From: Pocillopora verrucosa
Taxonomy: Eukaryota; Cnidaria; Anthozoa; Scleractinia; Pocilloporidae
Assembly: GCF_036669915.1 (NCBI RefSeq)
Contig: NC_089320.1
Location: 12,641,287 to 12,705,286, forward strand
Direction: 5' to 3'
DNA: 64,000 bases
The notes below the pieces were generated by a model. It was not told the origin of the DNA. It saw only the letters and a list, made by a program, of their open reading frames with translations, and searched no databases. Shown here piece after piece: positions 4,678 to 61,889 of this stretch (the first letter of the stretch is position 1; the number at the start of each line of letters is the position of its first letter). The position numbers and the translations under genes were made by a program.

Positions 4678-7600
4678 TCAGCACAATCGACATGTCTTCT
4701 TGCATTTAATTCTTACGTAAGCGTTAGTCGAGCATTGTGAAGCGAACATTGGACAGTACTTGCTGCTATCCTTACACGCAGGCCCGATACCACCACCTCC
4801 ACCTGCGGAATAGAAACAGAATCAAATTTTACCGGAGCCAGATGAGCTCTCCATCAGTTATGTGGAGATCAATTATCTGTACCATTATCTACCATCAAAT
4901 ATATCCCCATTTCTACTATCATAAAAATGTGACAGTCATGGCGGCCACTTTGGTTAGATTTCAACTTCTTCTTATAGAACTCATCGAAGGCCATTCATGT
5001 TAAGCGCTGGTTGCCTAAAAGTTTGTGAAGGGATACCGTACTCCCACATTTTCTTTTAAACACGATTGTTCTCAAGAAGCATATTTAGTCACTCAGTTAC
5101 TAACTATAATAACACATATTGTAATAGAGAAAAACATGGAAAGAGTGTAGAGGGAAGGGGGCGATTCTATTTGTTTTATTTTATTGTTTTTGCTATGTGA
5201 TACGAGGACAAGAGAATATAAACACTTTATGATCTCTTGAAGAGGATTATTAAGATGATTTAATCCAGAATAGTGGTTTGAAAGCTTCATTACTAATGAC
5301 AGTATTGCATTTACACCCATAAATGTAATGCACATATATTTAATAACTTACATAGTCCGCATGACTTTTTGCATATTTGCTTGACGTACGGATGGGTGTT
5401 ACAGTACTGTTTTAGGTACGGGCAATTTCTGTGGCCATCTGTACATGCTGGAAATATAGGATTAGAATTCTGTTTATTTTTTCTTTGAATGGGCATGAAG
5501 TAAAATATTAGGTTGATGGACTTCGTATCCATTTTGAATCAGATATAGAAGATAAAGATATAAAAGAATCATGCAGCACCTTCCCTTCAGAAGTAAACGT
5601 ACCAAAACCAACAGCAAAACAAAAGTAAAATTACGAATCATTAAAAAAAAGAAACCAAAACAAAACAGACAAACAAAAAAAGAAAAAGCCAAATTAGACG
5701 AGAAAAAATTGGTATGTTCTAGCTTTTACGCGTTTGGGAACAACATTACCCGAACAGTCAGCGGTAACTGCTTTAACTTTTGATTAGGCCTCATCAGTAT
5801 TGCATATATTTCCGGTTTTTAAAAGTCACTTAGACTGCTGTGCACATGTCTAAGCCGGAGGATAGTTTTTGTTAGTAACTGGCCCACAGGGGAAGAAAAA
5901 CAGGAAGTCCGGAGCAACCATCACAATTAATTTCCGTATCATAAATATAAGAAGGAGACATGCTTACCACCTCCGCTGCCACCACTGCCACCACTGCCCC
6001 CACTACCAGACATTTTCTGATTGAGCCAGTCAATGAAACTGCTGACACGGGCAAACACAGTGTAGAATTCAGTCCTGCACATTCCATTTCCCCAGCTGAC
6101 TGCACCTCGTAAAACCCATCCATCATTTTCTTTACAAACAAAAGGACCTCCACTATCTCCTTGGCAACCACCCGCCTGGTTTGCTTGTCCACTTCCTGCA
6201 CAGAGCATACTCGATTCCTCGACCGGAGCGAGTTGACCGTTCGTTCTGCTGCACGTGTTGTGATCTACAACTGGAAGTTTTGCTTGCTGTAGGGCGTTTG
6301 CGGCTGGGCCACCTCCGATGATCCTTCCCCATCCTGGTAGTAAAGATAATAAGATCTTGAAGCAGCTAGCTCTCTATTGCGGACTGAATTTTCGGGAAAC
6401 TTAAAAACATACTAAAACTGTCCCGTGTCTACTAAGTTCTATTTGATGTTAGCGTGGAAAATCAACTTTCAAATCATCCCAATTCTTTAATCCTTCTTAG
6501 CTTCACCGGCCATCGATGTTTTGAAACACTTGGAGATTTTAGGATTCCCTCCGCCTTCTCCTCCAAAAATGTTCTTACATCTGGAATTTTCAGAAATCCA
6601 AGGTGCAACGGTATTGTCATGAAAACGGAATAGATGCAAAACGTTTTTACTCGATCAAAAAGATCAGAGTCTGCCTCTCCTCATAGAAGAAAACGAGAAA
6701 TATTTTATCATTAGTGTAAATACTAAATTCTAGATACTAAATTTACAAAAATAAAGTTGACAAATGCAATTACCGCAAAATATGATTTTTTCGAGCCTGT
6801 ATGCAAACTTACCAGTGATGAAACACTCAGTTCCCGGTGGAATTCTACTTCCTTTAGGTGGCAAACAAACCGTGTTGACTTTATCACTGAGTTGAACTTC
6901 GCCATCCAGTTGCAGCAGGGCAATGTCTTTCCTTAGATGGCTCATTGAGAATCCTTCGTGTTTGAAAAGCTTTTTCAAATTGAATGTTTGTTGTACAGCT
7001 GTAGTCCCAGTTCTGATGTGGGCCCCTACATAGTGAGAAAACTTAGTGACCGTTCGTCATCGTTGGAGGGGAAAGGGAGGATTTTGGGAGATCACATAGT
7101 TTTCAGGGGAAAAGGAGGGATGATTAGTCTTCGCAGGCAGAGAATAAAGGGGGGGACTTCGGATAATTAAATGGCAATGAGGGGAGGGGGGGAGGGGGAT
7201 GATAAGAATATTGGGGGATCAGGTTTATGTTGCCGTTTCATAACCAGAATCCTCCAGCCTCCCCACCCCACATCCCCAGACGATGTACAATGAACGGTCT
7301 CTCAGAAGCGTAAGTGATAAAATTATACTCCATGAGCGAAAGATTCAAGAAATCGTGTTGCAAAATGTGTTTCAGCAATTGAGGATGAGGTAACATTTTC
7401 GCATTTCAAGAGACCTGGCAATGCTACCTCCGATTATTCAACATGTGCACTTACCAACGACCACTGTGTACCCGCTAGGATCTGGGTTCCTTTCTACGCA
7501 GTGAGCAGCAGTTACAACCCAACCAGGCTTGATTAGAGATCCTCCGCAAATGTGTCGTCCATTCACCCTGAGAGAGATCTGCCAAGGCCACGAATGCGGC

Positions 7601-8163
7601 GCAGCATCATCCCCGTTAACCACACGGGCACCAGGCGGACGAGAACCGCACCCTGAAATTCATCAATACATGGGAGATTATGGAGCTAACAGACAAATGA
7701 AAACACAAAACCCCAGATTACCGTACATGGTTTTCACCTTCTTATGGATCCAAATAAAAGTTATCCCAAAGATAAAGAAGGCACCAGTCACTGATCATGA
7801 AGAGATATGCGGATTAGGATCTTTCACGAGGATCGAGAGAAAAATGAATTGCATTGTTCTGTTTTTTGTTTTTTTTTCTTTTATGCAGAAAAGTGGGGAG
7901 CTTCCTGTGATCTTGAAACAGAGATATTGATATGGTTACATATTAGTACATGTACTTGTTCTCAAGAATGGGCAAAAAAGACACTCTTAGTTCTACCATG
8001 CTATTCGTAAATTAATGTTGCGTCATACTTTGCTTTAGTATGTATGACCTTTCTAAAATGAAAAGGATGGGGAATTGAAAAATGAAAAATTTATGAAGTG
8101 TTTCGTACCTTCAGAAAGGGCAGGAATACAAAGAGCTACAACAGCGATAAAAACAGACAACAT
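4678..8163 (-). CDS. SP2: secreted S1 serine protease with two tandem ShKT domains
   Basis: About 350 residues. Exons in order of transcription: 8109-8163, 7455-7652, 6813-7025, 5968-6333, 5352-5447, 4678-4802, all joined in phase 1. Signal peptide [19 protein letters not shown]; activation site GAR|VVNG; catalytic His in TAAHC, Asp in KDIALL, Ser in GDSGGP; Gly at specificity position 189. A Gly-Ser linker of repeated GGS follows the protease. Two six-cysteine ShKT domains come next: the first runs from ACTDG to CGLC, the second from ACKDS to CRLC, separated by GGGGIGP. The last Cys of the first ShKT is encoded across the intron: T at the end of exon 5 and GT at the start of exon 6. Reading past that GTAAGT donor would instead give an unrelated short tail ending at 5311. 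ShKT domains in animals act as protein-binding or channel-binding modules; the role here is unknown. Confidence 0.88.
7045..7303. mobile_element. Inverted-repeat MITE-like element in SP2 intron 2
   Basis: The two ends match in inverted orientation: AGTGACCGTTCGTCATCG on the left and the complement of CGATGTACAATGAACGGTCT on the right. The interior is G-rich on the plus strand at the left and C-rich at the right, consistent with one long imperfect hairpin. It begins only about 20 bases from the acceptor of SP2 exon 3 (7025/7026). No coding capacity; probably non-autonomous. Target duplication was not resolved. Confidence 0.6.
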
Positions 8164-10068
8164 GATAGTGGTAACCTATCCAAGGTAGGAAGTGAGGGAA
8201 GACAAGACGCCGTTACATTTATAAAAAGGCAATTTTTTCAGCTGACAGATGTATAGCATCGGCTCCTCTTTACTGTGCATTGTCATTTTAAAAAAAGTTG
8301 TCTTTTTTATTCACCGCTTTTTTCTCTGGAATTGCCCTTTTAAGAAACAATCGCCCTCCAATTACCCTTTTAAACTGCAGCTTTATTGATTGTTAACAAA
8401 AACGATATGAAATGGTTATTTTTTAATAAATCCCACGACTGATGACACACTAGTGTTAATCATATGCGTTGAAACAAAGCTTCATCGATCCGCAGTGTTA
8501 ATTTAATTTCTGAAAATGCGACACACAGATCTCAGATTAACCTGGAAGACATCTCAAAGTACAATACTGTCAATAACTTCAGTTAAGCATCGGTTAAGCA
8601 TCAGTTATGACAGAAAGCGACCAGTCACATTATATTTCCCTAGTAAGTCCACTCCAACAAGTTTCCTTCATTTTTGCCTTCGTATTACGTTCAAAGGCAA
8701 AATCCTAGGGAAAAAAACTTATCTATCGATAAAGCAACCATATTGATTACATTCAAGAATTTTTTTACAGATACCATAGTTTTGTAAGAATGCTCATGTA
8801 CGCATTGACGACTATTTCTTCGTAAAATAAAAATGGGAATGACTTATGGCAATTTAACAACTATATGATACAAGGAACTTGCCAAAAACTGCTAGACTCA
8901 TTCTCGATGTCCTAAAAATATCTAATATAGCCAAATGTAAATATCTTTTTGAAAGTTTGTCAACTGTTTGCTTGGTTCTGTAAACAGTAATTATCTTCAT
9001 GTAGCAACAATAAAGACATCCTTTGTGATCATGTCTTTAAATGCTGTTCACGCAAGCTAGGAAAACGTAATCGCTTCATTTTTCCATGAAGCAATTTGTA
9101 TAGTTGTCAGTAAGTCTTAGGTTTAAAACTTTGACAAGCTACCCAACCGATTTTTTTTGGACGATCTGTACAGAGAGAAAATTTAATAGAAGATAAAATA
9201 ACTGGTTTTACATTATAAAACAAACTTGTTATTCATGTGAGCCACTATCGACGTCCTTTACATTAACGATGCTGAAACAATAAGATGAGGGAAGATGTCT
9301 TTGACCACGATACTTTCTACGCCTTACGGCGCTATCAACTTTAAGAAGGACCACTCATAGTCTTCTCAGTGTACACTTGAGCCCCTACGATTGACAACAA
9401 TTTAGTTTCACCCCTTAATCAAAGACTAACGTCAAGAGAATAAAGGAAAAAATCACAAACTCAAAAAGCTCTTGATTGTTCGTTACTTTCTCCTTATAAG
9501 ATCCATGGGAAATGTATAGAGAACAGTTTCAGTGAAGAACTTGCATAATTATAGTCTAAAGGGTAACAGTTTAAAGATGGAGGTGGGGAACAGGCTTTGA
9601 TCCACAAAAGAAATCAGTCGGACGTCAGCTGTGCAATTAAACAACAACTTTATGTTTTGCAAGTTTTAAAATCATTTTGAGTGTCTCTGTGAAACACTAG
9701 ACCCTTCAAAATTTAATGTGCTACAAAATTTCTTGTTTACTTCGCTAAATGCTCTGGCGGAATTGGTACGCAATGTTCCAGGTGAAATTATTCAGATGGA
9801 AACTCGCATTGAAAACTTTCGCTTAATTTAACGGAAACACACAAAAAATTAAAAGGCACTTTCAATCCCTTTGGCAACTTTATTTTCCCTCTTTGCTATT
9901 TCTAATACAAGTCACAGGTCTTCGCCTTTCTTTGAGTTTTCTTGAGATATCGACGGACGCCTAGCTGTCTTTACGCCATATCTGCCGGAAAATAATATAG
10001 AGGAATCCTTGTCAAGAACTTTGTCATCCTCCTCGTACTGAGTGAGGCTAACACAGATATTTACTCAC
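8164..10068. other. Intergenic, SP2 promoter to SP3 3' end
   Basis: AT-rich with no recognisable coding sequence; the 76-codon open frame at 8516-8746 resembles nothing I know. The part next to SP3 contains a minus-strand AATAAA at 9879-9884 and a block around 9930-9990 that matches the 3' end of SP4, so it belongs to the duplicated SP3/SP4 unit. Confidence 0.45.
8218..8223 (-). promoter_or_regulatory. Candidate TATA box of SP2
   Basis: TATAAA on the minus strand, in TTTTTATAAATG, about 55 bases upstream of the SP2 start codon. The spacing fits a short 5' leader. Confidence 0.5.
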
Positions 10069-10437
10069 CCTTAACTTTTGCGTCAATCCAGTCCCTGAAA
10101 GAGCTTATTCGTGCAAAGACATTAAAAAAGTTAGTCCTACACATGCTATGACCCTAGCTAACAGCACCGCGTAAAACCCATTTTCTTCGCATACGTATGG
10201 TCCACTGCTATCACCTTGACAACCACCTGCCTTGTTTGGTTTACCACTTCCTGCACAGATCATGGATGTTTTGTCAATTGGTGCCCCTACTTTTCCCCAC
10301 TTTTTGGAACATCGCCTGTGACTCTGTGCGGGAAGCATCGCTTGTTGCAAGACTCTTGCAGTGTCTGCGACGTCGCCTCAACCTTCAGTCCGACCCCATC
10401 CTGAGTTAAAGAATTTAGGTAGAAAATTTTAAATAAA

Positions 10438-10482
<45 letters not shown>

Positions 10483-11548
10483 TATAGCAGGTAATTTAGT
10501 GCTAACAACTGGGTTGAAAACGTAAATTAGCCACCGTAAAGGGTAAAAAAGCTGACGTTTCGAGCGTTAGCCCTTCGTCAGAGCGATTAGAGGGAGAGAG
10601 AGAGTTAGAGATTAGAAAATTTTAAAAGCTACTTCATGTTATCCCCTTCCTCCCCCCACCCCTTTGCATTTCTTAATATTAATTACCTGTCATGTAGCAT
10701 CGGTGGCGGACTGAAATTCGAGATCCTTTGGCAGGAAGGTAAACGGAACTGACTTTGTCGCTCAATTTGGCCGGTTTGCTAAGGTGTAGAAGGGCGACGT
10801 CATTTTTTAAGGTGTTGCAAACTGAAGTCCTCGTGGGCAAAGAGTGCTCTCAGTTTAATTGTCTGCTGTACATCCATTGTGCCAAGACGCTCGTGTGCAC
10901 CTGGAAAGGTTTCAGCATTACACCAATTTAAGTGCAGAGAAGGCAAGAGAGACAAATATTACATTGTATACTCTTTTACTCTTGAACTCGTTCAGTCTTC
11001 AAAAGGTTTTTGGCAAGTTTTCGCTCTTAAGCCATGCGTGATCAATACAAGCGTCCTAAAATTTAAAAAAATATTGGTACCAACTCACTCGATGATGAAT
11101 ATGTACTTATTCCTACCGACAATAACGGTATAAAAAGAAGGATCCCGTGGAATATCATCCTGGTCCACCACACACTGCGCTACCGTCACAACCCGTTCGT
11201 CTGTGATCAAGGAACCGCCACAGGTGTGCACCAGGTCTCCAAATTGATTGAGAACTCGCAGCGACACCTGCCAGGGCCACGACTGCTTCGGTGCATCCTC
11301 GCCACCAACAACTCGAGAGAGAAAGCGTCGTTTGCCGCACTCTGGAGAGATGTAAATTGACTATATAAAGAGCACACGGAAATGCGTAAACTGCTACAAA
11401 GTCTACTTTATATGGAACCTAACTAGAAAATGTGAACCGTGCGAAGAGGTTTAGATTGAACTTAATCCTTTTTACTTAAATATTGTACCTTGAGAAAGTA
11501 CCAGTTTTAGGAAATAGCCACCACAACCACTTGTAAATAAAGCTTCAT
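10069..11548 (-). pseudogene. SP3: decayed S1 serine protease, tandem paralogue of SP4
   Basis: Four exons line up with SP4: 11489-11548 (signal peptide), 11117-11341, 10687-10900 and 10069-10400. Every exon is damaged. The signal exon is one base short and reads into a stop after MKLYLQVVVVAIS. Exon 2 is open, but the catalytic His is Gln (TVAQC). Exon 3 is 214 instead of 213 bases, a one-base insertion just before the catalytic Asp, and a core Cys is Tyr (VYLP). Exon 4 has an in-frame TGA soon after its start, a deletion of about 7 bases before the strand that ends in Ser-Trp-Gly, a TAG in place of that Trp, and GDSSGP instead of GDSGGP. Splice sites are still recognisable. No functional product is expected. 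Confidence 0.9.
10500..10612. repeat. Dispersed repeat fragment in SP3 intron 3
   Basis: Contains GACGTTTCGAGCGTTAGCCC followed by TTCGTCAGAGCGA and a short GAGA tract. From memory this motif recurs widely in cnidarian genomes as part of a dispersed repeat. Only this copy was noticed in the window, so the family assignment rests on recall. Confidence 0.5.
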
Positions 11549-13547: not shown

Positions 13548-16119
13548 TCACTCCGTACCTGGAAAACAGCAAAAAGGAAGCCCAGTCAAGAACTTTGTTA
13601 TATTTTTTGACAAATTGAATCAGTAAGTCTGAACAAATTGACTCACCGGACCCTATTCCATCACCTAGATTGATCGACGAAAAAAGGAAAAGGAAAACGA
13701 AATTAAGGGATAAAGATGGTTAACTTTGTTATATATGGAATGGATATCTGGAGAAGTAGCAAGTTTTGTTGCTCAAAAATCCAACCTATGTGACACAGCC
13801 AATCAGAGGGGTGTAATTAACAGACACGACCTGGCATTTGGATAAACTCGAAAACCTTAATTGGTTTTCATATCCTGTGAATATTTCATCTAAACATTAT
13901 GCTACCATCTGCCTCGCAAAATCTCCTTTTATACAAGAAGAAATAAAACAGTCCATAAACAAAGATATCATTTAAGCTAAAGAAGAGTGGATTATTTAGT
14001 ACACATCTCAAATACACTGCGAAAATGATGAATTTCGTCGCAGAAAATCGTATGTCGATCGGAAAGCTATTTTAAACATCGCTAAATTAGTATTTGATCA
14101 AAGTCTGATAAACAGCTAAACAAAACAAATTTCTCAATAGAAATGGGGCTAAAATCAGCTTGAATTTATACTGTTTAAAAGCCCATGATCACAGCTTTAA
14201 CTGTTAAAACAGCATATGGGAAATAAAGAATGTAAAATGCTCATTGTTTAGTTTGACGGAAAAATAAATAAAATCAATTGGTTTGTTTGTAAAATTTCCG
14301 AAGTACCTGTGTTAGAATTCTATAAGGAGCCTTTGTAGCAACTTTCATAATCTACAGCGTGTTAAGGAAATCATTATTTTATCTGAGTTAATATATCATA
14401 CATAATGAGTTTTTTTTATCGGTAAGGACATTCCCTTACCCTCAATCTTCGCGTCAATCCAATCCCTGAAAGAGCTTATTCTTGCAAAGACAGAAAAGTA
14501 TTCTGTCTTGCACAAGCCATGACCCCAGCTCACTGCACCGCGCAAAACCCATTTGCCATATTCCGCGCATACGTATGGTCCACCGCTATCACCTTGGCAA
14601 CCACCTGTCTGATTTGCTTTACCACTTCCTCCACAGATCATGGATGTTTCGTCTATTGGTCCCAAATCGTCGTTTACTTTGGAACAATTTTCGTGGCTCT
14701 GTACGGGAAGTACCCCTTGTTGCAAGATGTCTGCGACGTTGCCTCCACCTTCGGTCCGACCCCAACCTAAATAAAAAGAATTAGAATATCAGAAAAAAGA
14801 ATTGTAACAGATCAACGTCACACCTTGCATTGTTAACTGGTCATACCTGTTATGTAACAAGGATGGCCGGCAGAAATTCGAGATCCTTGGTCAGGAAGGC
14901 AAACGAGGTTGACTTTATCGCTCAGCTGGGCCGTTGTGCTTAGGTGTAAAAGGGCGATGTCATTCTTTAAGTGTCGCATACTGAAGCCCTCGTGAGGATA
15001 GAGTGCCTTTACTTGAATTGACTGCTGTACATCCGTTGTGCCGAGACGTTCGTGTGCACCTGAAAAATTTTTAAATTTCACAATGATTCTGTTGAAGTTG
15101 TTAAATCTTATCAAGAACTCTGAATGTGTCCTTGGTCCAACGATCGTGAAAAGTGAATTTTTCGTCCTGCAATCGTACTTCCAAACCAAGCTCTTAAAAG
15201 TTTTTTCGCTCTTATACCCTCTGCTATGCTTTAATCCTATTTCTCTTAAACATTTCCACGAAAACACCCAAGCATTATGTTGAAAGACTAGTTGCGGCGC
15301 CTTAGAAAGACGAACACAATTAGTTGTGAACGAGTTATCACGAAGTCGTCTTTGTTTGCGGCTTTAGTTTTGCTTAGCTTAGTTTTCGCGTCTTCGTAGC
15401 TTTTGTTACCTTGGTCAATTAGTCATATATTGTGAGCAAGACTTTTTCCTAATCCGATGAAGTATTTGGTGGCAGAATGTTAGAGTGCTTTCCGAAGGAT
15501 CTCGATATTAGTTTATTTTTATTGTTTCATGTGACCACATATTTCCTAATGTTAAGATTCCAGAATTGATGCTTCGCCAGCTCGGGGGACTCAGTCATTT
15601 AGCTTGACTTTCTGAGGGACTGAAAATATTTTGTACCGATCGATTCACCGCAGCTTCCTGAAAAGGGTTGCTTTACAAGTTTGTTTTCTTACCGAGAACA
15701 ACGGTGAACAGAGAAGGATTCCCAGGTCTGTCACATCGGTCCACCACGCAATGTGCCGCCGTCACCACCCATTCGTCCCCGATCAAGGAGCCGCCACATA
15801 TGTGCACTGGATTTCCTTCGCGGCCTGGGAGTCGAAGTGACACTTGCCAAGGCCATGAATGCTTTGGTGCATCCTCCCCACCCACAACTCGAGAGAGAAA
15901 GTGTCGTTTGCCACACTCTGGAGAGAGAAAAAAATTAGTACGATGTGGAATAGAAAGAAGGAAATAATCAAGTCCTCTTAAATGATACCTCAATTGTGAT
16001 TAATGTGGAAAGAGATTAAAATTGGACTTAATTACACATCCTTGCTTGGGAATTGTACCTTGGGAGAGCGCGACGTGTACGAAAAAGGCCACCACAACTA
16101 CTTGTAACTTGAGCTTCAT
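13548..16119 (-). CDS. SP4: secreted S1 serine protease with short micro-exon tail
   Basis: About 284 residues. Exons in transcription order: 16059-16119, 15693-15917, 14847-15059, 14440-14766, 13647-13664 and 13548-13558 (coding part), all phase 1. Signal peptide [20 protein letters not shown]; activation site LSR|VVGG; catalytic His in TAAHC, Asp in NDIALL, Ser in GDSGGP; Gly at position 189 ([10 protein letters not shown]). Instead of ShKT, the C terminus is completed by an 18-base micro-exon (GDGIGSG) and three final codons ending TGA. The micro-exon is inferred from good splice sites and phase; if it is skipped, exon 4 joins the last exon in the same frame and still ends at the same stop. 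An extra Cys after the His loop (VVDRCDRPG) has no obvious partner. SP3 is its degraded neighbour. Confidence 0.83.
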
Positions 16120-20488: not shown

Positions 20489-26423
<5,935 letters not shown>

Positions 26424-45504: not shown

Positions 45505-48374
45505 ATGTGGTCGCTACCGCTCCTTGCCACAATCGTGGCATTAGGAGTCGTCCAAGCAGAAGACGAAGAATCATTTGCGCTGGTAGGAAGAAAGATTTAT
45601 AATGAAGAGGATTTATTGGGAATCTTACCAGCTCTGAAAAAGCTGCAGTAAAAACCAGTTTCAAAGAAAGTATTAGTCAACTGTAACTAGGATGATTAAC
45701 CCAACGGCTTATTTCCAGCTTTTAGCAAAGGAAATCAATGATACTCCATCAAGTTGGAGTTTTTCAATATCATTTATGACTACAAAATTATTTGAAAATG
45801 AAATATCTGAGTTCAATGAAAAAGGTTTGCATACATTTAAGAAATATGTCGCAGCTTTTCTATACTTTACCGGCATCGTTTCAGGACTTGCGAATTTTGT
45901 TTTTATTTCGGAGAATCAGCCCCTTTGTTCCGTTCCAAACAGGAGATGCCACGGTCATTTTTGGGCGCGTGAAAATAGAATTTGCTGGGACTCGTACTCT
46001 TTGTTTAGCTATGAAATGATTTTACGTGCAAATGTGTGTCTTTGGTACTAATAAAAACATATTACGCTTCTGCTAGTTTTTTATCAAATTCATGAGCCAC
46101 TGAGTGATCACGTTTTTTAACTTTTATCGTAACAGAATATCTCAACCAGTTCAGCTATCTTTCAATGTCAAGATCCGGCAACCATGATGTGAAGAAAGCC
46201 ATCAGCAACTTTCAGCGTTTTGCTGGCTTGGATGTTACTGGTCGTCTGGACAGACCTACACTAACTTTGATGAAAAAACCGAGGTGTGGAATGCCAGATG
46301 AAGTGGCAAGCGGTAACCGTTTTCGCCGCTATAAAACAGCCTCAAAATGGAGGAAGACTTCTTTGACGTACTACATCCAACATGGCCGCGACCTCAGCAG
46401 AGATCAGCAAGACCGTATTTTTGCTAAGGCGTTGCAATATTGGGCTGACGTATCATCGCTCTCGTTCAGGAGAGTGAACAGTGCAGGACAAGCTGATTTG
46501 AAAATCAGGTAAAGCGTTGTCTTCAACGAAAACCTTTTTATCAAAATGGTCATCTTCAGATAAAGACAAGAGTAACAAAAAATGATAGTAGTATGTCTGC
46601 CTGTTTGTTTACCTGTCTGTTCACATGTAAATTGCATTGTTATTTATTGTCTATGTGTATGTTTGTTAATTTGTTCAGTTTACCTTTCCTGATTTTAGTT
46701 TTGGAACCCGAAGACACGGAGGAACCAGTGCTGAGAGAACATGTGGAAGCACATTCGACGGCCCGGGTAGGGTTCTGGCACACGCGTACTTCCCCTCGGA
46801 CGGCCGCGCCCATTTTGACGAAGATGAAACATACACAGACGGGCAATCAAGGGGAACAAATTTGCTGTGGGTTGCCACCCATGAATTTGGGCATTCACTC
46901 GGTTTGGAACACACCAACGTCAAAGGTGCAATCATGTACCCCTACTATACTGGCTACGTTCCTAATATGAAGCTTCACTCTGATGACATTGCAGGGATAC
47001 GCTCACTTTACGGTGAGGGAGAGAAAACTTATCATAGCTTCTCTTAATTACAGTAGTTAACATTGTATGGAAGGCCATGATGAAATACTAGCCCGAATTT
47101 TGAAAAGCATGTGAGTTTGTTTTCCTCCAGAGCGGAATTTAATTTTCCGATATCTTTAAGAACTTTTCAGCAACGATCATAGCTTTAAATTCAAGCCATA
47201 GGCCTTTTAATTCGAAGATGATGATGATACGTACGCCACAAAGATAATTTTTATGGTGCTCTATTTTACAACCTACAGTGATCAAGTGCATGGTCACGAG
47301 TGGGAGTGAAGTGCAATATGTTGCTTCGTACATTTAGCAGAGTTGAGAGAAGTGTCTTACTGGCGAAAGGGAGGCAGGAGAACGAGCCCTGTAGAAGCCT
47401 GAATTTGTGTCAGGATCATCTTTTCCCATATTATTCACACATTAAAATAAATTTCTTTTATTTCTAAAAAGCTCACTGACTGATATTTCCTATTTGTGTC
47501 ATCATCATATAGGATCTGGCGGCGGAGGTGGAGGTGGGGGCGGAGGTGGAGGCGGCGGTGGAGGTGGCGGTGGCGGAGGTAAGCATCCGGGAGAGGGGAG
47601 ACATCGATCAATTATTCTACCTTTTGAGTAACACGAAAGTGACACCCTCGCTAGGTTGTGAGGAGGGAAGGGATGGGCTGAAACCCTTCCTCGATTTTCG
47701 CCCATTTTCACTTTTTTTGACACAATCTCTTGGAATACTTTTCCCTTTGATAAGGATTATGAGTTAGTCATTTCAACTATGTACGCCCTTGGATACTGGT
47801 CTCGTAATCCAAAATAGCCGAACAGGTCTTATTTCGTTTTTGTCCCTAAAATAGATTTTTTTCCAAGACACCCCATTTCTGCTGAACCACTATTTCCAAA
47901 ATTATCAAATCTAAAAGGGCTTAGATATAAACTGCTTCTTCAAAGTAAATCTTTCATTCGGTGGATCTTAAGAACTTGTAATACTTCACGTCAACAGAAA
48001 TTGCTACACCATTCGCCTTTTTTCTCATAATACCTCCAGGAGATTTGTTATGAAATTTAAACCAAATTTTCAGCGAGCTATAATGACCAAGATGTGAATG
48101 GGCAGTTACATTAAATTTTCAAGCAGTGATTTCTTCGAAGAAATTGCACCCAGTCCCCCAAAAAAGTTAAGCTTATGGAGGTGCCCCATACAAGTAAGAG
48201 GACCCGGTAACAGTTTATTTCTGATTCATTCTACCTTTGGGAACAGGAATGATAACCTTTTTTTTATTTTCAGGCTGTGTAGACAAGGATCGACGTTGCC
48301 GTGGATGGACCAGATACTGCCGCTCCAACAGATATGTCCAGGCTAACTGTCGGAAAACATGCAGATTTTGCTGA
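45505..48374 (+). CDS. MMP-B: matrix metalloproteinase with poly-Gly linker and ShKT
   Basis: Exons: 45505-45582 (signal peptide [20 protein letters not shown]), 46136-46508, 46699-47012, 47513-47578, 48274-48374; about 310 residues if the first junction is resolved. Cysteine switch KKPRCGMPD, furin-type site RFRR|Y, zinc motif [12 protein letters not shown], Met-turn AIMYP. The linker exon encodes Ser followed by about 21 Gly. The ShKT domain runs from GCVDKD to CRKTCRFC. The signal exon ends in phase 0, but the next exon needs one preceding base to stay in frame (its EYLNQ-like start is one base short compared with MMP-A and MMP-D). As written, the exon 1-2 splice would meet an early stop. 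Either a one-base deletion, a sequencing error or an unseen alternative first exon explains it. From exon 2 onward all is intact. It is divergent from MMP-A. Confidence 0.82.
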
Positions 48375-48409
48375 ACTGGAAAGTACGTGATATGTAATGA
48401 GTTAGACCT

Positions 48410-48762
48410 TAGTCCGAGTCCGAGGGCAGTGCGACCTTGGTCTGAGGGCAGTAAGACCTTGGTCCGAGGGCAGTAAGACCTTGTTATTTTTTTCTCAGTT
48501 CGTGAGCGGGCGGTATTCTACAACTCCTGAAATCTGATTGGTTCCGAGAGCGGGCAGTATTCTCCCCATCCGGCCCGCTCACAGCGGGCGGGTTTTTTCG
48601 CAGCCATTTGTTAGGTTTTAGAGAAAAATAAAAATGTTATTCACCAGCCAAGGTCGGTCCGTATTGGGAAAAACTGTGCTCTCTGTCTTGTGTATCTTGG
48701 CAGCATCCAAGACCTTGGGCACAGTTTTTCCCAATACGGACCTCCCTTCTGGTGAATAACAT
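48410..48762. repeat. Composite repeat block: three short tandem units plus a palindromic MITE
   Basis: Three tandem copies of a unit like GAGGGCAGTAAGACCTTGGT lie at about 48419-48484. They are followed by GC-richer sequence with GAGCGGGC/GCCCGCTC motifs. A hairpin element at 48634-48762 has inverted ends ATGTTATTCACCAG and CTGGTGAATAACAT, and inner inverted arms GTCCGTATTGGGAAAAACTG and CAGTTTTTCCCAATACGGAC. I recall closely similar sequences as frequent in coral genomes. Confidence 0.6.
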
Positions 48763-50526: not shown

Positions 50527-53500
50527 ACAATTTGAAACAGGACTTGGGGCACCAGTACTTCATATTATCGGGGTATATCGGCAATAATCAGCATCCACAT
50601 AAGGTTTGCATCCCATTCTGTCGCTGCACGCACCTACATGGTCTGTCATCATATAATGGACATCAGTTATGATTCCAACCGAACCGGTAAATATCTCTGG
50701 TTATAACCCACCCATTAATTTTCGCGCGACTTTATTGGCTATTTTACGTCACGTGGTTTAAATTCAGTGGATAGTGATCACGCAATATCCCCATTTACGT
50801 TTATATTGGTTCTTCGATTAGTTCTGTCGAGAATAACCAAAGCCGGTGAGAAAAGTCAGCTCAAGAGTTTCACTTTTCATCTTTTTTACGTTATATGAAA
50901 GAAAAACGAACTCATTTTTCAGATTCCATTGGCAATGACATTGATAAACTAAATGATTAAATAAATATTATTATAGATTATTAATAAACTATCTCAGCCG
51001 CGGAAATTATCAGCGGATATACCAACCGTCTAAAGGGGCATATTTACTAGATAAGCTTACTCACCATACTAGTTAATGCAGATATGCCAGAGGACCTTAA
51101 CACTTGTGTAAACACACACGATACATCCTGAATAATTTTAAAACTTTTCTATTTCAATACATTTAAGACTTTCAGGTTTTCTGATCACAAATTCAATCAT
51201 GTGAAGTGAATTGTTCACTTACAATATGTTTTTGTAAGAACAGTCTATTATCTCAATACTGTTTAAGACAAGTATGCTGAGGATCTTAATACTTCTATAA
51301 ACACATATAATAGATCCTGGAAAGTTTTTAACACTCTCTATTTCTGTGCATTAATAACATCACCAAACGACATTTTTTTTCTAAGCACAGTCTCTTACCT
51401 GAATCTGTGGGAGCAGGAGTAGTGGGAGCAAGGCTAGGAATAGGAGTCTGTACTCCACCACCACCGCCAGTGTTGGGGCCTGTTTGAAAGGAAAAGGACA
51501 ATAAAATTTCAAGACAGTGTCACTAAACCTATGCGTTTTAAGGTGGCCTTCTACAGCACACGTAAATTTCAAAAAGGAAATTGAAAAATCGTTTATGTGA
51601 CAACCATAAAACTTTATGACTTATCTGAGCAGATCTTCCACAATATTTTGTAGCAATCCATCAAATATCATGTACTCGTTGACTAAGTCGCTCTCTTTGT
51701 TTTATCCCATCTTCTTTTAGCTTGCATTCAAAGCGCTGCACGGCTCTCTGCCTCCCTGCTCAAGCCATCACGTATAGACGTCATACGAGAACTTTTGTCT
51801 ACTGTTTATCAAAAAAGTCGCACGCGGGGAAGGCCGGACGAGTCATACGATCATTCAAAAATATAAAACTTTGCGCAAATTGCCACCCGACAGGTCACAG
51901 AAATAACATCCACTAATAAAACCATTATGAGCTTGACATGAAAATCAACATATGGAAATGACTCTTCTGAGTGGATCCGACGAGCATGTATGCTTTCCAT
52001 CAATAAGCAGAGCTTTTACATGTATGTCGAATAACTATCGAATAGACGCTAACCCAATTACCCATCATAGCTTCTGGACTACTCAGTAGAGAACTCTTTA
52101 GCCATGGCTAACACCAGTTTCATTGAGCCATACGCAGCGATAACGTCCATCTTTCTCACCCGCATAGTGATCTCCTACATCCCTATCATGGAATAATGTT
52201 AAAAACTAAAATCGCTTTGTGCTCACCGTATAAATACTGTATCCCTGCAATGTCGTCAGAATGAAGCTGCATATTTGGTACATAGCCTGTATAGTAGGGG
52301 TACATGATAGCACCACGGACATTAGAGTGAGCCAGTCCAAAGAATGACCAAAACTCGTGGGTTGCCACCCACAGAAGGTTGGTACCACTAGATGTGTCAT
52401 GAGTAAACGTTTCATCCTCATCAAAATGAGCTCGTCCGTCAGAAGGATAGTAGGCATGCGCTAAAGTACCTCCAGCTCCGTCAAAGGGATAAGGACAAGT
52501 CCGTTCCACAGCAGTGCCTCCGTGACTGTACCGTCCAAAACTATGAAGTAAAATAAGTGTTCTGTTTGCATGGAGGAGTTTATTGAAGAGAAAGCTGTCT
52601 TTGGTTATTGAGGGAAACCAATCTGTTCTCTGCTTTGCCTGGAGTTTAATGATGGTTGAAACAGTTTATTCCTTCTATGCTCATAGCGCAGCTTTTTTCC
52701 TCTTTCAAATGTTTCCATATTATTTGCATGTGAATGTCTGTTTTCTCGAGTGCGCTAATAGTCTTTACTAAACAGTGATCGTGTGAATAAAACATTCTAA
52801 GCTAAACATGAAATCAGCTTTCTTAACTCAACCTGAGGCTTACAGTTGTACCTGTGGTTTGCTCATCCCATGACTCTTGCTTAACATTACAGCGTAAATC
52901 GATGTACCTTATCTTGATGTCTGCGCTGTTGGCATCCATGACCGCGCTAAATGACATTCCGGAAACATCAGCCCAGAAATTCAATGCTTGACCAAATATG
53001 GACCGTTTGTTGATCCTAGGGAGAGGAGGAGGAAAGCTTGTCATACGTGAAGCACAAGCCTATTCATATATACAAAAGAAAAAAGTATTAATTTCGTAGG
53101 TACAGGTAGTTCTCTGAAATTACATTCCCTTAAAAAGCACTGTAAAAACATCGTTATCGTGCAATAGCATTTTCATGAAACCTTTCACCTCTTCCACCCC
53201 CCTCCCCCCCCCTTTCGAGTGACTAGCATCTAGTTCCTCCTGTCTTTTCACTTTTGCTCCTTTATTAAATATTTAGATTGGGAGAAAAAGGAAATGAACG
53301 AGACTCGACTCAAGAAGCTTTTATGTTAAAAAAATTCACTTAGTACCAAAGGAAATGTATAGAGAATAGAATGGAGAATCTGCATCTTTGATTATTAGGG
53401 TGTAGCGGGTTGCTAGCTTAACATTGGGGTAGGATCGTAGCCATGCTGCACCAAACATAAGTCACAATGATTTCTTTCTCCACGTCTCCATTAGTAGCGT

Positions 53501-54640
53501 ACCTTCGCACGCGTCTGCCTCCTCAACAGGGTCGGCCATACCACATCGAGGCTTCTTCATGAGACTAATTGTTGCTTCATCGAGCTCGCCACTCACTGGG
53601 AGACCATAGAATTTCTGGAAACCCTCGGATAGCAGTCGCTACATCGTGGTTAACTGCTTCGTTGAGGATGAGATGTAGCCATAATGGCCTAGAAATTTCT
53701 AGAACATAATGAAAGTAGGTTTAAAGTAATTACTCTGTACAAAATGTAGTTCTTAACCTTGAATGTGAAAAATTTACGCTTTACGACTTTGACCAGGGAA
53801 AGTGGAAAATATGCAGGCGTTATGTGTAACGACAGTGATGTTTCTTCCTTTTGACATAACTGAAAAACTATCCAATTTTTCCCCTATCTTAGACGAAATG
53901 TCACGCAAATACAATGTTTTTTTTTAATCAGAATATTTAGATGCTAAAAAAGGATCAAAGTTAAGTGAGGTGTATGAAACTTCATGGGTTGTTTGATCAT
54001 GGTCAATTATGGGTGTCAAGACTATACGATCAAATCTCTTTTACACCTTTTTGAAAGGGAGATCCAGCGTTCGAGGAGCTTCAACTATTCAGAAGACCTC
54101 TTTCATCAAAAAATCAACTTTACAGTAGGTTTTGAAATTTGCAGACATCTTTCAGGAATCTCCTCTCCTCGTATTTTAGCAAGAGTACACGGGGCAAATT
54201 TAAAATAAAAGATTTCAAGACTGCGTAAACCCTGCTAATTAAAATAAAAACACTTGATTTGAAGCACCACTTTAGAACAAAAAAATACCCTTTTCATACC
54301 CAACGAAAAAGTTAGAAACAGTCATTAAGAAGGATTTTTGCCCCATTTTTAAGGGATTTGAATCATTAGTATTGCATAGTAATAAGCCCTTCCAACTTTT
54401 AAAGGAGGCGTGTAATGACAGTAAGTGATACTCAAATGTAAGCCTATATTGAAACATTTTACGTTAAGTTTGCAAGGATTCCTTCACGTTTCTTTTTTCG
54501 CTCATTTGCTCTATCGACAAACGAGTCATTTCCTACCAAGAAAATGAATCTTTATGTCTACATACCAGGGCCATAGTTTGGTCATCTTCACAAGTAACAA
54601 AATTGACGAGAAAAGGCAGAAATAATGCCAAATGCAACAT
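50527..54640 (-). pseudogene. MMP-C: decayed matrix metalloproteinase-ShKT gene
   Basis: Exon remnants in transcription order: 54566-54640 (intact signal peptide MLHLALFLPFLVNFVTC), 53503-53698 (propeptide), 52908-53015, 52227-52540 (catalytic), 51399-51479 (linker of Gly, Pro and Thr) and about 50527-50633 (ShKT). Lesions: compensating indels with an in-frame TAG early in the propeptide exon; the segment encoding the furin site and first catalytic strand is missing (exon 196 bases against 264 in MMP-D); a one-base insertion in exon 52908-53015 (108 against 107); the zinc motif is HEFWSFFGLAH, so the second His of HExxH is gone through two nearby offsetting indels; and a one-base deletion truncates the ShKT domain after its third Cys. 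The cysteine switch is still readable as KKPRCGMAD. Splice sites remain recognisable. Exon layout matches MMP-D, its same-strand neighbour. Confidence 0.88.
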
Positions 54641-57313: not shown

Positions 57314-60300
57314 TCAGAACTCACATTTAGAACACGACTTCGCGCACCAGTACTTCATATTGGAAGGGTAAGCGTCGCAATAACCAGCCTCGACATATGG
57401 TTGGCAAGATGACGCCAACCTATCATCGCAGTCAGCTTCATTGACAAAAAAGAAGGTATTAAAAAAAAATCAATTATAACTTGAATTAACAAGGATTAGC
57501 CAATCTAATGAACTAGTGATCAGTAACTTCCTCGCGGTACTTTAAATAGGAGTTTCTTGACTTTTGTAATTAATTTTGTCATTAACCTTCCCAGGTATTA
57601 CTATATTTATATCTGCTGGAAATAAAGTGGATCAAACTTTCATGGTCGCATCGTATGCACTCATCGTGTTCACTATGCAAAATTCATATGATCTCTAACA
57701 AATTACAAAGCCGCACAAGAATGTTTACACAAAATACAACACTTTCTACAAAAGCTCAAGGGCGCGAGGTAAGATATTTTCGAGACAAGGAGTATATTTG
57801 AGCTCTAGCGCATTGTCAAACGTAAATATTGTACACAGCTGCACGTATGTTTTGTGGAGTGAAACTGAGCGAAGGATGAGATGAAGAAAAGCTTTCGTTT
57901 AAATATTTTTAACTTAATTTATCGCTCTCAGCTTTACAAACTTAGTGAGACATGTTTTCAGTTTTAGTCTTCTATTTTTCTGAGATGTCAAAACCTCAAG
58001 CTCTTCGGGAAGCTCTGTGTACAAAACTTTTTTCGCAGTGTGAAAGCCAACGCAGGCAACCAACACTATGTCTGCTGGTGTGGATATCATAGATGAACTT
58101 TTGGGAAAAAAGGGTCCTTGCAAAGCGCAGAAATTTCAAAACAGAGTTTGGGCTCTGATCTTGCGTGGAAAAGTCCAATATATTTTGAAGTCCTCCTTCT
58201 GTTACGATTTGCAAATCATCCTTAAATTTTGAAGGTAACCGGCTCTTATTTCTGTTGTTGTTATAATTATTTGAGGATGTAAGATTTGTAAGGAGCAATA
58301 TCTTGGATATATGGGCCAAGCTTAAAAGATAGTTACCATTAGATAGCATCATATACACACTACACTTCGTGGGTCTTATCATTACTTCCGGAATGTTATC
58401 GAATGACTAGTATTTGTTTTACTTTCGATCAAAAAGAAATTCAGCATAGTGACTGACATCTGGAGGAGTGATTTCTTTAGTCGGGTAAGACTGTATATGA
58501 TTTGATTACCCGTACGACATGAACCGATCAGAATTCTATAAATGCGATATCCGAAGTTGAGAATTTAACAAATAGCTCTTTAGTTATCATAACTTACAAG
58601 GTGGAGCAGGGGTCTGGCCGCCACCACCAGCATCAGTACCATCGTTTGAACCTGTAACGAACACAAGTCAGTGAAGCGTTTAAGAATCAAACTACAAAAC
58701 TTGTATCTTTAAATACTATAGCTTGTTTTTAAAAGCACGATGATCATGACAGCGACTACTTTAGAAATTTCAGTTCCAAAATAAAAAGGTTTCTTGAAAT
58801 GAATTATCGTAATCACAACCATCAACAGCGTTATCAACATCAAAAACATCGTTATAATCGTCAATATTACGAATTAACATTTGGCACTCTCAGTCATTGA
58901 CAATTTTAAAATCCTCACTAAAGACCCATTTATTTTGGAAATACCTCCTTGTTTAATAGGTTTAGTCTCAGAGGTTCATGATAACCTTGATCACACCCAT
59001 AGAAATTATATTTAATCCACTGTAATTGGATCTTGTAAAAGTTGTAGACATACATACTTGATGTTTTCTATCTGTACATGTCGATAGGGAACTGGTTACA
59101 CTTGAAAAGCATTGAAATTTATGTAATGCCATAAATCATAATATATTATGAATTTAAAGTAATTACCATTAACATCATCACTATTACCATCGAATATCAC
59201 ATTTAGTATTTTTGCTATCATTAGAAAAAGTAACTCTGTGGATAGTTTTAAAAGGGCATTGAAAACGTAACTTTTTCGTGAGAGCTCTTTCTTTTAGTTG
59301 TAAAAAGCATCGAGACATTTATATGTAGAATACGTTCTTAAAAACTCTAGTTATTATTGTTATTATTACTATCATATAAAGTGTGATTATTACTTTTCGT
59401 GGGTGCACTTCTATTCTGACCATAAGAGAAAAATAGTTTACGATGAATAGCTAATATTGAAAATCCCTGCTCATTACTATTGGAAAATAGAACAATTCGT
59501 GTATGAGAGCGCAAGTCATCAAAATTCTTACCGTATAGATATTGTATCCCAGCAATGTCGTCTGAATGAAGCTTCATATCTGGTACATAGCCTGTGTAGT
59601 AGGGATACATGATCGCACCCTGGACATTTGTGTGGTCAAGGCCAAGGGAATGTCCAAATTCGTGCGTCGCCACCCACAGAAGATTGACGCCATATTTAGT
59701 GTCGTGTGTGTAAGTTTCATCCTCGTCAAAATGGGCTCGACCATCTCGAGGGTAATAGGCATGCGCCAACACACCTCCAGCGCCTCCGAACGGATAGGGG
59801 CATATTGTCTCTCCATTTGTACCATTATGGCTGTACGTTCCAAAGCTATTTCAAGAAAAATTATCAACATTTTATAATTTCGTCATTCGTAGACTACAAC
59901 TTCTTTGGAAAAATTCCTTTCCTATAAGCGATTTCGGTAGGCTTCGTCTGCAATACGGTTTCATGTCTTCATTGCTTGGTAAAACGCATATCTTAAAGCC
60001 GAAAAATAGTCAATTTTCTCTGGATTGGCTGAAAAAGATTATAACATACACCATTCGCGCACATGTATTTTGGTTGAGTAGTGAAGTTCTTCTTATCTTA
60101 ATTACATGGAGGTGATCCATCAGATAAATCACAGTCATATCTAACTAATCTGTAATCAGCTAAACTCGTGTCTAGATTACCTTATTTTGATGTCAGCTTC
60201 ACTGGGACTTTCAACTGATCTGAATGATAACTTGGAAACATCAGCCCAGTACTGCAGTGCCTTAGCAAATATCTCTTTTTGTTGTTCCTGAGCAAAGAGT

Positions 60301-61889
60301 TAGATTTCTATGAGTTGCTTTGTATTCATAAGAATTACAGGATTTTTAAAAAATATTCCAAAACGGAACAGGCTTGTTCGAAAAAGCTGCTGGCTGTATA
60401 CTTTGATCGCAGAGAATTGTGGGGACATTCAAAAAGGTTAAGAGAGAAACTAAGTAGCATATTTACGAGAGGGTGTCGGGATAATTCACTCTTTTTCAAA
60501 GTCATGAATTCAAATAATGTTTTGTTGCATTTTCTTCCAAAATATTCTGCATAAGCCATGTCTTTTTCTAATTTCTGTTCGTTCTTGCCTCTCTTTGTGT
60601 TCTTCGGGGTTTTTTTATGTTTGTGTATTACTTTCTGTTTGCTTTTATTTCTCCTTGGCTGATGCCGCTTTTTGCTTTTTTTTTAAGGGTAAGTAATAAC
60701 TCACTGTCATAAAACGCCTTGCAATGAATGTCGTAATGCCAGACCAACCAAAAGAATCACAAAAGCCAATCAGAAGAAAAGGAACATCACAAGGAGCGTA
60801 TGAGGACCCATAGAAGGGTGAAAGTTTTCTCGATCAATCAAAATGCAAACTTAAGCAAATCTAATGCAATCTCGTATTACTTTCTACACTAAATTTCGCT
60901 CAAGATTCTCGTTGCATGGCTTTGTTTAGTTATTTCTATGATCTGATGGTAAATGTAACCCCGCCCCAAGTAGATGTTATTTACCGCTGGTAGATCCAGG
61001 CCAGGTTGTACGTAATACGTTAACTCAGTCTTGTACCATTTGCTTCTGGTGACATATCTTCGCTTTCGAGATTCTCCAGTTGGATCAGGCATTCCACAGC
61101 GCGGTTTCTTCATGAGTCTAATTGTCGAGTCATCGAGTTTACCACTGGCTGGAAGGCCAAAATACTCCTGAAAATTTCTTATGGCTGTGGGTACATCGTG
61201 GTTGCCGCTTCGCGTGTGTGATATGTACCCGTATTGGTTGAGGAATTCCTTATTTTTGAAGGAAAATGGAATATTTTAAGGAGCCATTTATATCGTTAGC
61301 GTTTCTCTACAATTTTTTCTTTTTGCTTCGATTTGGGAAGAGTTATCTAAGTGCTGTCCATGCATCAAGCGCCCTTCTTATCCTTATTTTGACGCGCTAA
61401 TTGGACGATGTTGTGATAAACTAAAAGTAAAAATTTAATTGGTACGAAAATGACTAAAAATCCAACAAAAATTGCAAATGACCAACTGAAAAATTGACCA
61501 TTGACGGAATAGATAATGAGCACAAATCAAAATCTGATTTTTACTAAACTGATGTTTGATGTTTTATGCATCTTCTTTGAAGACATGAAGGCCTTGGGTA
61601 GAGGAATTGACAAAAAATCTAATATCAAAATTTGATTTCTCTTAGGGAACACTAACAATTTGTTAATTTTCGGTACCCTGACTAGTTCGGTGATGACTGA
61701 AAGAAGGATATACCAGAAGAGGAACAAGAGTTAGGAAATTTTCCTTCGTACGTGATTAGGTCAAGCATGATCTCCTGCTTAAGTCTTAAAAACTCAGTTT
61801 GATTTCGAACTTACCAAGCCCTCAGTTAGGTCATCATCACCGACACCAACTTGAATAAAAAATGCTACTAGAAGCGCGACAGCCAACAT
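57314..61889 (-). CDS. MMP-D: furin-activated matrix metalloproteinase with ShKT tail
   Basis: About 311 residues. Exons in transcription order: 61815-61889, 60985-61248, 60181-60287, 59532-59845, 58598-58651, 57314-57435; phases 0, 0, 2, 1, 1, all consistent. Signal peptide MLAVALLVAFFIQVGVG; cysteine switch KKPRCGMPD; furin-type site RKRR|Y; zinc motif [12 protein letters not shown]; Met-turn AIMYP. The linker mixes Gly, Gln, Thr and Pro (GGGGQTPAPP), unlike the pure Gly linker of MMP-B. The ShKT domain runs from DCDDRL to CAKSCSKC and ends EF. Compared with MMP-A and MMP-B, an extra phase-0 intron splits the mature N-terminal region after LDLPA. The ShKT has a longer spacing (GYCDAYPSNMKYWC), shared with MMP-C. 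All catalytic residues are present. Confidence 0.9.

What the first reader, a model, noticed from the sequence alone, without database searches (positions are those of the whole stretch)
4678..61889. One linker-ShKT exon module attached to two unrelated protease families in a single locus
Seven S1 loci and four matrixin loci lie side by side. SP2, SP5, SP6 and MMP-A to MMP-D all end in a ShKT exon entered in phase 1; SP2 and all the MMPs also have a separate Gly-rich linker (its own 1-1 exon in the MMPs). Internal ShKT and linker exons are symmetric 1-1, the class most easily shuffled. Two catalytic folds with no common ancestry sharing a tail in adjacent clusters suggests exon transfer between neighbours, or repeated capture. 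The combined locus may act as a secreted protease toolkit with common targeting.
Basis: partly seen in the sequence, partly recalled or inferred. Interest (0 to 1): 0.78.

Follow-up and report, generated by a model that had tools for sequence, protein, structure and literature searches.

The report
Protease cluster with ShKT tails
Two unrelated families of secreted protease genes sit side by side in what looks like a cnidarian genome, and several carry the same kind of small cysteine-rich tail; this is real but mostly follows a known pattern of exon shuffling, and nothing here shows that neighbours recently swapped tails.

Summary
The window has seven S1 loci (SP3 broken) and four matrixin (MMP) loci (MMP-C broken). 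Intact ShKT exons follow SP2, SP5, SP6, MMP-A, MMP-B and MMP-D; MMP-C has a frameshifted one. SP2 has two. All four MMPs have a candidate 1-1 linker exon. Seven genes splice to open frames.

Phase 1 is the default in the S1 genes (12 of 12 catalytic introns), so phase-1 entry says little. It is not clearly one module: SP2a, SP2b, MMP-A and MMP-B share one cysteine spacing; SP5, SP6 and MMP-D differ; jellyfish aurelin falls in the same weak branch as the first four. No S1 ShKT exon shows significant DNA similarity to an MMP ShKT exon, and synonymous sites are near saturation. Recent transfer is unsupported; ancient transfer cannot be settled from such short domains (AU p 0.11-0.40).

Trypsin-ShK proteins, single-exon ShK domains and their shuffling are published for Nematostella (PMC6767649), and MMP23 is a known matrixin with ShK. 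New member of a known kind; the mixed S1/MMP neighbourhood is the mildly unusual part.

The parts
520..2601 (+). SP1: S1 protease, signal exon 520-577, exons 963-1163, 1450-1662, 2234-2601; ends in a Gly/Ser/Asn stretch, no ShKT found
4678..8163 (-). SP2: S1 protease, exons 8163-8109, 7652-7455, 7025-6813, 6333-5968, 5447-5352, 4802-4678
5968..6010 (-). SP2 Gly/Ser linker at the end of the last catalytic exon, ending in a phase-1 donor
5352..5447 (-). SP2 ShKT1 exon (SP2a), symmetric 1-1; the last Cys codon is split by the donor
   Evidence: Pfam ShK E 1.9e-08
4678..4802 (-). SP2 terminal exon: Gly linker plus ShKT2 (SP2b)
   Evidence: Pfam ShK E 2.5e-07
10064..11360 (-). SP3: broken S1 locus (in-frame stop in the last catalytic exon, GDSSG for GDSGG)
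14442..16119 (-). SP4: S1 protease; phase-1 donor-like site at its end, no ShKT found downstream; signal-exon junction ambiguous
20489..26423 (+). SP5: S1 protease, exons 20489-20552, 22438-22671, 23295-23510, 24623-24973, ShKT 26299-26423
26299..26423 (+). SP5 terminal ShKT exon, entered in phase 1 (two acceptors 6 bases apart, both phase 1)
   Evidence: Pfam ShK E 7.6e-07
29299..32676 (+). SP6: S1 protease, exons 29299-29353, 30162-30407, 30756-30980, 31909-32268, ShKT 32549-32676
32549..32676 (+). SP6 terminal ShKT exon, entered in phase 1
   Evidence: Pfam ShK E 6.2e-09
37685..39626 (+). SP7: S1 protease catalytic exons, no ShKT found; no convincing first exon found
40590..43962 (-). MMP-A: exons 43962-43888, 43084-42714, 42221-41908, linker 41052-41005, ShKT 40690-40590
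41005..41052 (-). MMP-A Gly-rich linker exon, 1-1
40590..40690 (-). MMP-A terminal ShKT exon
   Evidence: Pfam ShK E 1.9e-06
45505..48374 (+). MMP-B: exons 45505-45582, 46150-46508, 46699-47012, linker 47513-47578, ShKT 48274-48374 (the 46150 acceptor was found only after the search range was widened)
47513..47578 (+). MMP-B poly-Gly linker exon, 1-1; also a tandem array of period 18
48274..48374 (+). MMP-B terminal ShKT exon
   Evidence: Pfam ShK E 4.3e-09
50528..53638 (-). MMP-C: broken matrixin locus (disrupted prodomain, zinc motif lost, ShKT exon frameshifted); candidate linker exon 51479-51399
57314..61889 (-). MMP-D: exons 61889-61815, 61248-60985, 60287-60181, 59845-59532, linker 58651-58598, ShKT 57435-57314
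58598..58651 (-). MMP-D linker exon, 1-1 (short Gly stretch, then Thr/Pro-rich)
57314..57435 (-). MMP-D ShKT exon; a stop follows two residues after the last Cys, but that Cys codon also overlaps a donor-like GTGAGT, so a further exon is not excluded
   Evidence: Pfam ShK E 0.0031

Best explanation
The locus is a cluster of secreted protease genes from two families, several of which carry a C-terminal ShKT exon. The S1 genes look chymotrypsin/elastase-like. The MMPs are minimal: signal peptide, prodomain with Cys switch, furin-like site, catalytic domain, linker, ShKT. The S1 zymogens would be activated by cleavage before the VVGG/IVGG start, the MMPs at RxRR and by release of the Cys switch. 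The linker lets the ShKT knob move freely from the catalytic domain, and the ShKT most likely binds a target or surface. The tails sit at phase-1 introns, the usual class for metazoan extracellular modules, and were gained, lost and reshaped over long times while local duplication multiplied the genes. Shown here: anatomy, phases by consensus splice sites, open frames, old divergence, no DNA trace of S1-MMP tail exchange. Inferred: secretion, activation, linker role, ShKT as a binding module, and repeated gain and loss.
For: Spliced frames without internal stops, starting with a hydrophobic signal-like stretch, for SP1, SP2, SP5, SP6, MMP-A, MMP-B and MMP-D, the seven genes assembled of the eleven loci. 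Catalytic triad motifs and GDSGG in 6 of 6 S1 genes other than the broken SP3. Cys switch, RxRR and HExxHxxGxxH readable in MMP-A, B and D. S1 catalytic introns phase 1 in 12 of 12 best-scored joins, three of them after moving the search range. No significant S1-MMP ShKT DNA similarity. Synonymous differences pS 0.61-0.94 in the 28 exon pairs compared. ShKT presence needs at least two changes on the tree of six S1 genes. Nematostella: 26/82 ShK domains associated with trypsins, every ShK of the tryptome on one exon, ShK domains of sister trypsins almost never monophyletic (passages of PMC6767649). Metazoan shuffled modules are mainly 1-1, serine proteases cited as an example (passages of PMC7259759). 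One gland-cell type of a stony coral expresses many trypsins and other proteases (passage of PMC8162421).
Against: Splice sites are consensus calls without RNA data; signal peptides were judged by hydrophobicity only. The case for repeated gain rests mostly on published Nematostella work, not on this genome. MMP-A/MMP-B tails (15 of 33 residues identical) diverge more than their prodomain plus catalytic exons (167 of 211; Fisher p 1.3e-4, an unplanned test), while MMP-C/MMP-D do not (78% over 91 bp of the tail, 79% over 278 bp of the catalytic exon) and SP5/SP6 do not significantly (14 of 38 against 127 of 255, p 0.16); the MMP-A/B contrast could mean a swapped tail as well as weaker constraint. 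The absence of S1-MMP DNA similarity is a weak argument beyond recent times, because MMP-A/MMP-B and SP5/SP6 ShKT exons show none either. PMC8162421 places ShK toxins in cnidocytes (passage), so a gland setting for these proteins is not assured.
Confidence: 0.72

Rival explanations
1. Ancient local exon transfer: a ShKT exon of the MMP-A/B type moved to SP2, or the reverse, between neighbours, long enough ago for DNA similarity to be lost.
For: SP2a, SP2b, MMP-A and MMP-B share one spacing (C-x6-C-x6-C-x8-C-x3-C-x2-C). SP2a matches MMP-A at 10 of 27 non-Cys positions, as well as it matches SP2b (9 of 27). Holding all four S1 ShKTs as one clade costs 6.0-6.6 log-likelihood units, against 1.8-2.8 for SP2a+SP2b+MMP-A+MMP-B.
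Against: AU p for the S1-only clade is 0.113-0.189 and for SP2+MMP-A/B 0.179-0.363; neither is rejected, and neither is in the best seven-row tree. Aurelin, from a jellyfish, falls in the same weak branch (29/80 support) and matches SP2b at 9 of 27 positions (S=26) against 7 of 27 (S=31) for MMP-B. No DNA trace. The linkers are low-complexity.
Confidence: 0.15
2. Vertical inheritance: each family already had its ShKT before the local duplications, and the patchy pattern is loss (SP1, SP4, SP7).
For: SP1 keeps a linker-like stretch without ShKT; SP4 and the broken SP3 keep a phase-1 donor-like site after the catalytic domain. MMP-C and MMP-D tails match at DNA level. All four MMPs have a candidate linker exon and a ShKT exon or its remnant.
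Against: SP2 ShKTs (33 aa) differ in spacing from those of SP5/SP6 (38-39 aa). In Nematostella the ShKs of sister trypsins are almost never monophyletic. A single S1-ShKT clade is not rejected, however.
Confidence: 0.3
3. The shared linker is convergence, not a shared part: GGN repeats expand easily and give Gly-rich linkers independently.
For: The MMP-B linker is a tandem array. SP2 has a Gly-Ser repeat; the MMP-C/D linkers are a short Gly stretch plus Pro/Thr-rich sequence. SP2 and MMP-B linker stretches align only at E 0.073 and 0.89.
Against: The linker's position and 1-1 phase are constant in all four MMPs, so within the MMPs it is probably homologous.
Confidence: 0.65

Closest known systems
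Trypsin-ShK proteins of Nematostella and other cnidarians (Babonis et al. 2019, PMC6767649)
   Same: S1 domain plus ShK; each tryptome ShK on a single exon; tandem duplication and exon shuffling; ShK of sister trypsins almost never monophyletic (abstract and passages)
   Different: The parts read say nothing of an adjacent matrixin cluster with ShK tails, and the word 'phase' does not occur in the main text; supplements not read
Vertebrate MMP23 (catalytic domain, ShK, Ig-like domain)
   Same: Matrixin with a ShK domain; the window's ShKT profile finds the solved MMP23 ShK domain at E 4.4e-4
   Different: The window MMPs end at ShKT with no Ig-like domain found and have a linker exon. PMC1867822 (passages) infers that MMP23 gained ShK early in the tetrapod lineage, so a shared origin of the fusion is not shown
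ShKT-astacins of cnidarians and other animals (PMC9848320 passages)
   Same: Secreted metalloprotease with ShKT
   Different: Astacin family, not matrixin; no S1 partner cluster mentioned in the passages read
Matrilysin (MMP-7)
   Same: Best solved match of the MMP-B catalytic exon, E 6.5e-26; no hemopexin domain (recalled)
   Different: No linker-ShKT tail (recalled)
Chymotrypsinogen C
   Same: The only solved match of the SP2 last catalytic exon at E 1e-22 or better (E 2.8e-23)
   Different: No ShKT tail (recalled)

Membership tests
ShK domain (PF01549) | Profile match and six cysteines | tested here: met
   Six of seven intact domains above the gathering score, MMP-D 18.5 against 20.9 bits; six Cys in all seven
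ShK domain (PF01549) | Two-helix ShKT fold | tested here: inconclusive
   SP2a model, mean pLDDT 69.9, two short helices. The top two Foldseek hits are ShKT peptides, but none reaches E 0.001 (best 0.041)
Matrixin (M10) | HExxHxxGxxH zinc motif with Met-turn, Cys switch in prodomain | tested here: met
   MMP-A, B and D met; MMP-C not met for the zinc motif. Pfam M10: MMP-A pro/catalytic exon E 4e-10, catalytic exon of the broken MMP-C E 4e-30; MMP-B catalytic exon against matrilysin E 6.5e-26
S1 chymotrypsin-like protease | His-Asp-Ser triad and GDSGG | tested here: met
   Motifs in 6 of 6 genes other than the broken SP3; SP1 last exon Pfam Trypsin E 1.5e-22
Trypsin-ShK shuffled by single exons | Each ShK domain encoded by one exon | tested here: met
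   7 of 7 intact domains lie within one exon, save that the last Cys codon of SP2a is completed by the next exon
MMP23-type MMP | Ig-like domain after ShK | tested here: not met
   MMP-A and MMP-B stop at the last Cys, MMP-D two residues later; a further MMP-D exon is not excluded
K-channel blocker | Blocks Kv channels | not testable with these tools
   No assay
Local S1-MMP exon transfer | S1 and MMP ShKTs of the locus group together against other ShKTs | tested here: inconclusive
   Only two outside domains used; support 29/80; aurelin inside the group; AU tests without outside rows reject nothing

The most novel reading that the evidence does not exclude
The locus is a long-lived exchange hub in which ShKT exons have passed between S1 and matrixin genes by recombination through phase-1 introns. 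SP2 tails would come from the MMP-A/B type, and one of MMP-A or MMP-B would have replaced its tail after duplication.
Probability: 0.1. Interest if true: 0.55.

Novelty: new member of a known kind. Interest (0 to 1): 0.27.

Why it matters
It gives a compact natural case of two protease families with the same kind of tail as neighbours, including broken copies and a copy with a linker-like stretch but no tail. That makes tail gain, loss and replacement testable across related cnidarian genomes. As it stands it mainly illustrates exon shuffling already described for Nematostella trypsins.

Tried and rejected
Whole-genome search for other ShKT domains: no genome is held. Outside relatives were sought in viral contigs with the MMP profile (42 stretches, 0 relatives) and the S1 profile (41 stretches, 1 relative), and in prokaryote genomes with the MMP profile (108 stretches, 5 bacterial relatives). 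The five are bacterial by title and the one viral-contig locus was not looked into; none entered a tree. A paper search for printed ShKT end motifs gave 5 papers; one was opened for its exon passages (PMC11122761) and no sequence was taken from it. Synonymous divergence as a clock failed because pairs are near saturation. The ShKT trees are unresolved. Structure prediction of SP2a gave moderate confidence only. A Lys-Tyr pair before the fourth Cys of MMP-D was considered as a channel-blocking pair and dropped: by recalled ShK numbering it lies at a different offset from the third Cys (no call). The phase-1 argument for transfer was rejected because the S1 genes are phase 1 throughout.

Rows dropped: MMP-C was left out of all ShKT comparisons and trees except the DNA comparison, because it is broken; SP3 was left out of the S1 tree and. 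SP4 and SP7 were not. MMP-C's catalytic exon was kept. Of the 13 solved ShKT-like chains, two (aurelin, MMP23) were used as outside rows.
Full report
What is there. The window holds seven S1 serine protease loci and four matrixin loci. I assembled seven genes, SP1, SP2, SP5, SP6, MMP-A, MMP-B and MMP-D. All splice to frames without internal stops that start with a signal-peptide-like stretch, judged by hydrophobicity. For MMP-B a first try found no join of the signal exon and a wider range did. SP4 and SP7 have open catalytic exons but were not assembled: the first junction of SP4 is ambiguous and no convincing first exon was found for SP7. SP3 has an in-frame stop and GDSSG for GDSGG. MMP-C is broken in prodomain, zinc motif and ShKT exon.

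The tails. A cysteine pattern found seven intact ShKT domains: two in SP2 and one each in SP5, SP6, MMP-A, MMP-B and MMP-D. A profile of these, run with filters off over the six frames of the window, added only the MMP-C remnant (E 3.4e-4); the next match is at 0.55. Pfam ShK matches all seven, six above its gathering score. These searches found no ShKT for SP1, SP4 or SP7. SP1 keeps a Gly/Ser/Asn stretch like the SP2 linker.

Exon phases. The best-scored introns between the catalytic exons are phase 1 in 12 of 12 junctions of SP1, SP2, SP4, SP5, SP6 and SP7; three of the twelve come, where I moved the search range after one search had missed the homologous boundary. The signal-exon junction is phase 1 in SP1, SP2, SP5 and SP6; for SP4 the best-scored join is phase 0 and the second phase 1. 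In the MMPs the phases run 0, 2, 1, 1 (signal/pro, pro/catalytic, catalytic/linker, linker/ShKT) in MMP-A and MMP-B; MMP-D is the same with an added phase-0 intron. So the tail always enters at phase 1. In S1 genes that is simply the usual phase, and metazoan extracellular modules are mainly 1-1 (passages of PMC7259759). Only the first SP2 ShKT exon and the MMP linker exons are symmetric 1-1; the other ShKT exons appear terminal. In SP2 the last Cys codon of the first ShKT is completed by the next exon, and skipping that exon also keeps the frame.

Is it one module? The ShKTs fall into spacing classes. SP2a, SP2b, MMP-A and MMP-B have 33 residues as cut and identical spacing; SP5 and SP6 have 39 and 38; MMP-D has 37, and the broken MMP-C is its sister at DNA level (78% over 91 bp). 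By score SP2a is as near to MMP-A as to SP2b (S=38 each). Aurelin of a jellyfish, an outside domain, scores S=26 with SP2b, close to MMP-B with SP2b at 31. The nine-row tree puts SP2a, SP2b, MMP-A, MMP-B and aurelin on one side with support 29/80, which is weak, and long branches are flagged. Without the two outside rows the best tree differs: SP2a goes with SP6 and MMP-D, SP2b with MMP-A, MMP-B and SP5. AU tests of four groupings under two models reject none, p 0.113 to 0.401.

Age. Blastn among eight tail regions (SP1, SP2, SP5, SP6 and the four MMPs) found S1-S1 and MMP-MMP similarity in catalytic exons, but nothing significant between any S1 and any MMP ShKT exon. The best is 24 bp at 83%, E 0.26, in the cysteine end motif of SP2b and MMP-B. 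The control limits what this shows: of the sister pairs only MMP-C/MMP-D have ShKT exons alike at DNA level; MMP-A/MMP-B and SP5/SP6 do not, although their catalytic exons are. Synonymous differences are 0.61-0.94 per site in the 28 exon pairs compared, so even sister genes here are old. A recent S1-MMP transfer should have left a trace like that of MMP-C/MMP-D and there is none. An old one cannot be excluded.

One result against the plain reading. MMP-A and MMP-B share 167 of 211 residues in prodomain and catalytic exon but only 15 of 33 in ShKT (Fisher p 1.3e-4). SP5/SP6 show no significant contrast (127 of 255 against 14 of 38, p 0.16). Weaker constraint on the tail or a replaced tail could both cause this. 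The test was not planned beforehand, and saturation prevents a synonymous check.

The linker. The MMP-B linker is a tandem repeat. The SP2 linker is a Gly-Ser repeat. The MMP-C and MMP-D linkers are a short Gly stretch with Pro/Thr-rich sequence. The SP5 and SP6 linkers are not Gly-rich. Common ancestry of the SP2 and MMP linkers is not shown and repeat growth would explain the likeness.

How it probably works. The parts point to secreted zymogens: S1 enzymes with Gly189 in SP1, SP2, SP4 and Ser189 in SP5, SP6, SP7 by recalled chymotrypsin numbering (residues), so chymotrypsin- or elastase-like rather than trypsin-like; and MMPs with a Cys switch, a furin-like RxRR and an intact zinc motif. 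Best solved relatives are matrilysin for the MMP-B catalytic exon and chymotrypsinogen C for the SP2 last exon. The ShKT is most likely a disulphide-rich binding tail on a flexible linker. Nematostella proteases are expressed in mesentery ectoderm (passages of PMC6767649) and one gland-cell type of a stony coral expresses many trypsins and other proteases (passage of PMC8162421), so a digestive or mesentery role is the likeliest setting; the same coral paper places ShK toxins in cnidocytes. Function and expression were not tested here.

Against what is known. Babonis et al. 2019 (abstract and passages) report the trypsin-ShK combination, single-exon ShK domains, almost no monophyly of ShK between sister trypsins, and exon shuffling. 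MMP23 shows that a matrixin can carry ShK (passages of PMC1867822). ShKT-astacins are widespread (passages of PMC9848320). Gerdol et al. 2019 name metalloproteases and trypsin-like proteases among ShKT-bearing proteins (passages of PMC6409789). A Nematostella ShK-type short protein has been likened to a segment of MMP23 (passage of PMC3509713). I did not find a cnidarian matrixin-ShK, or a mixed S1-matrixin ShKT cluster, in the listings of my searches. Those searches cover open-licence papers, several listings were cut (20 of 34, 15 of 46, 15 of 60 and 10 of 154), and I opened eight papers in all, so this is not a claim of novelty in print.

Verdict. The striking part of the interpretation, transfer between neighbours, is unsupported for recent times and undecidable here for old times. 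It is a new member of a known kind with modest interest.

Noticed in passing
5352-5447: The first ShKT exon of SP2 is an in-frame cassette whose last Cys codon is completed by the next exon; isoforms with one or two ShKTs are possible.
   Followed up: partly
33770-34117: A short open frame matches the start of a ubiquitin carboxyl-terminal hydrolase (Pfam UCH, E 2.1e-8) between SP6 and SP7; the rest of such a gene was not sought.
   Followed up: partly
35272-35488 and 36800-37334: Two minisatellite arrays of about 60 bases upstream of SP7; by eye the units are related and in opposite orientation.
   Followed up: no
48650-48748: A 41-base inverted repeat, 85% complementary with a 17-base loop, downstream of MMP-B; it may be a small mobile element.
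   Followed up: no
48418-48483: A 22-base tandem repeat of three copies shortly after the MMP-B stop.
   Followed up: no
L002-L006, match at 8001 onwards: Bacterial genomes (four Streptomyces and a Chloroflexia bin, by title) encode matrixins 48-54% identical to the MMP catalytic exon.
   Followed up: no
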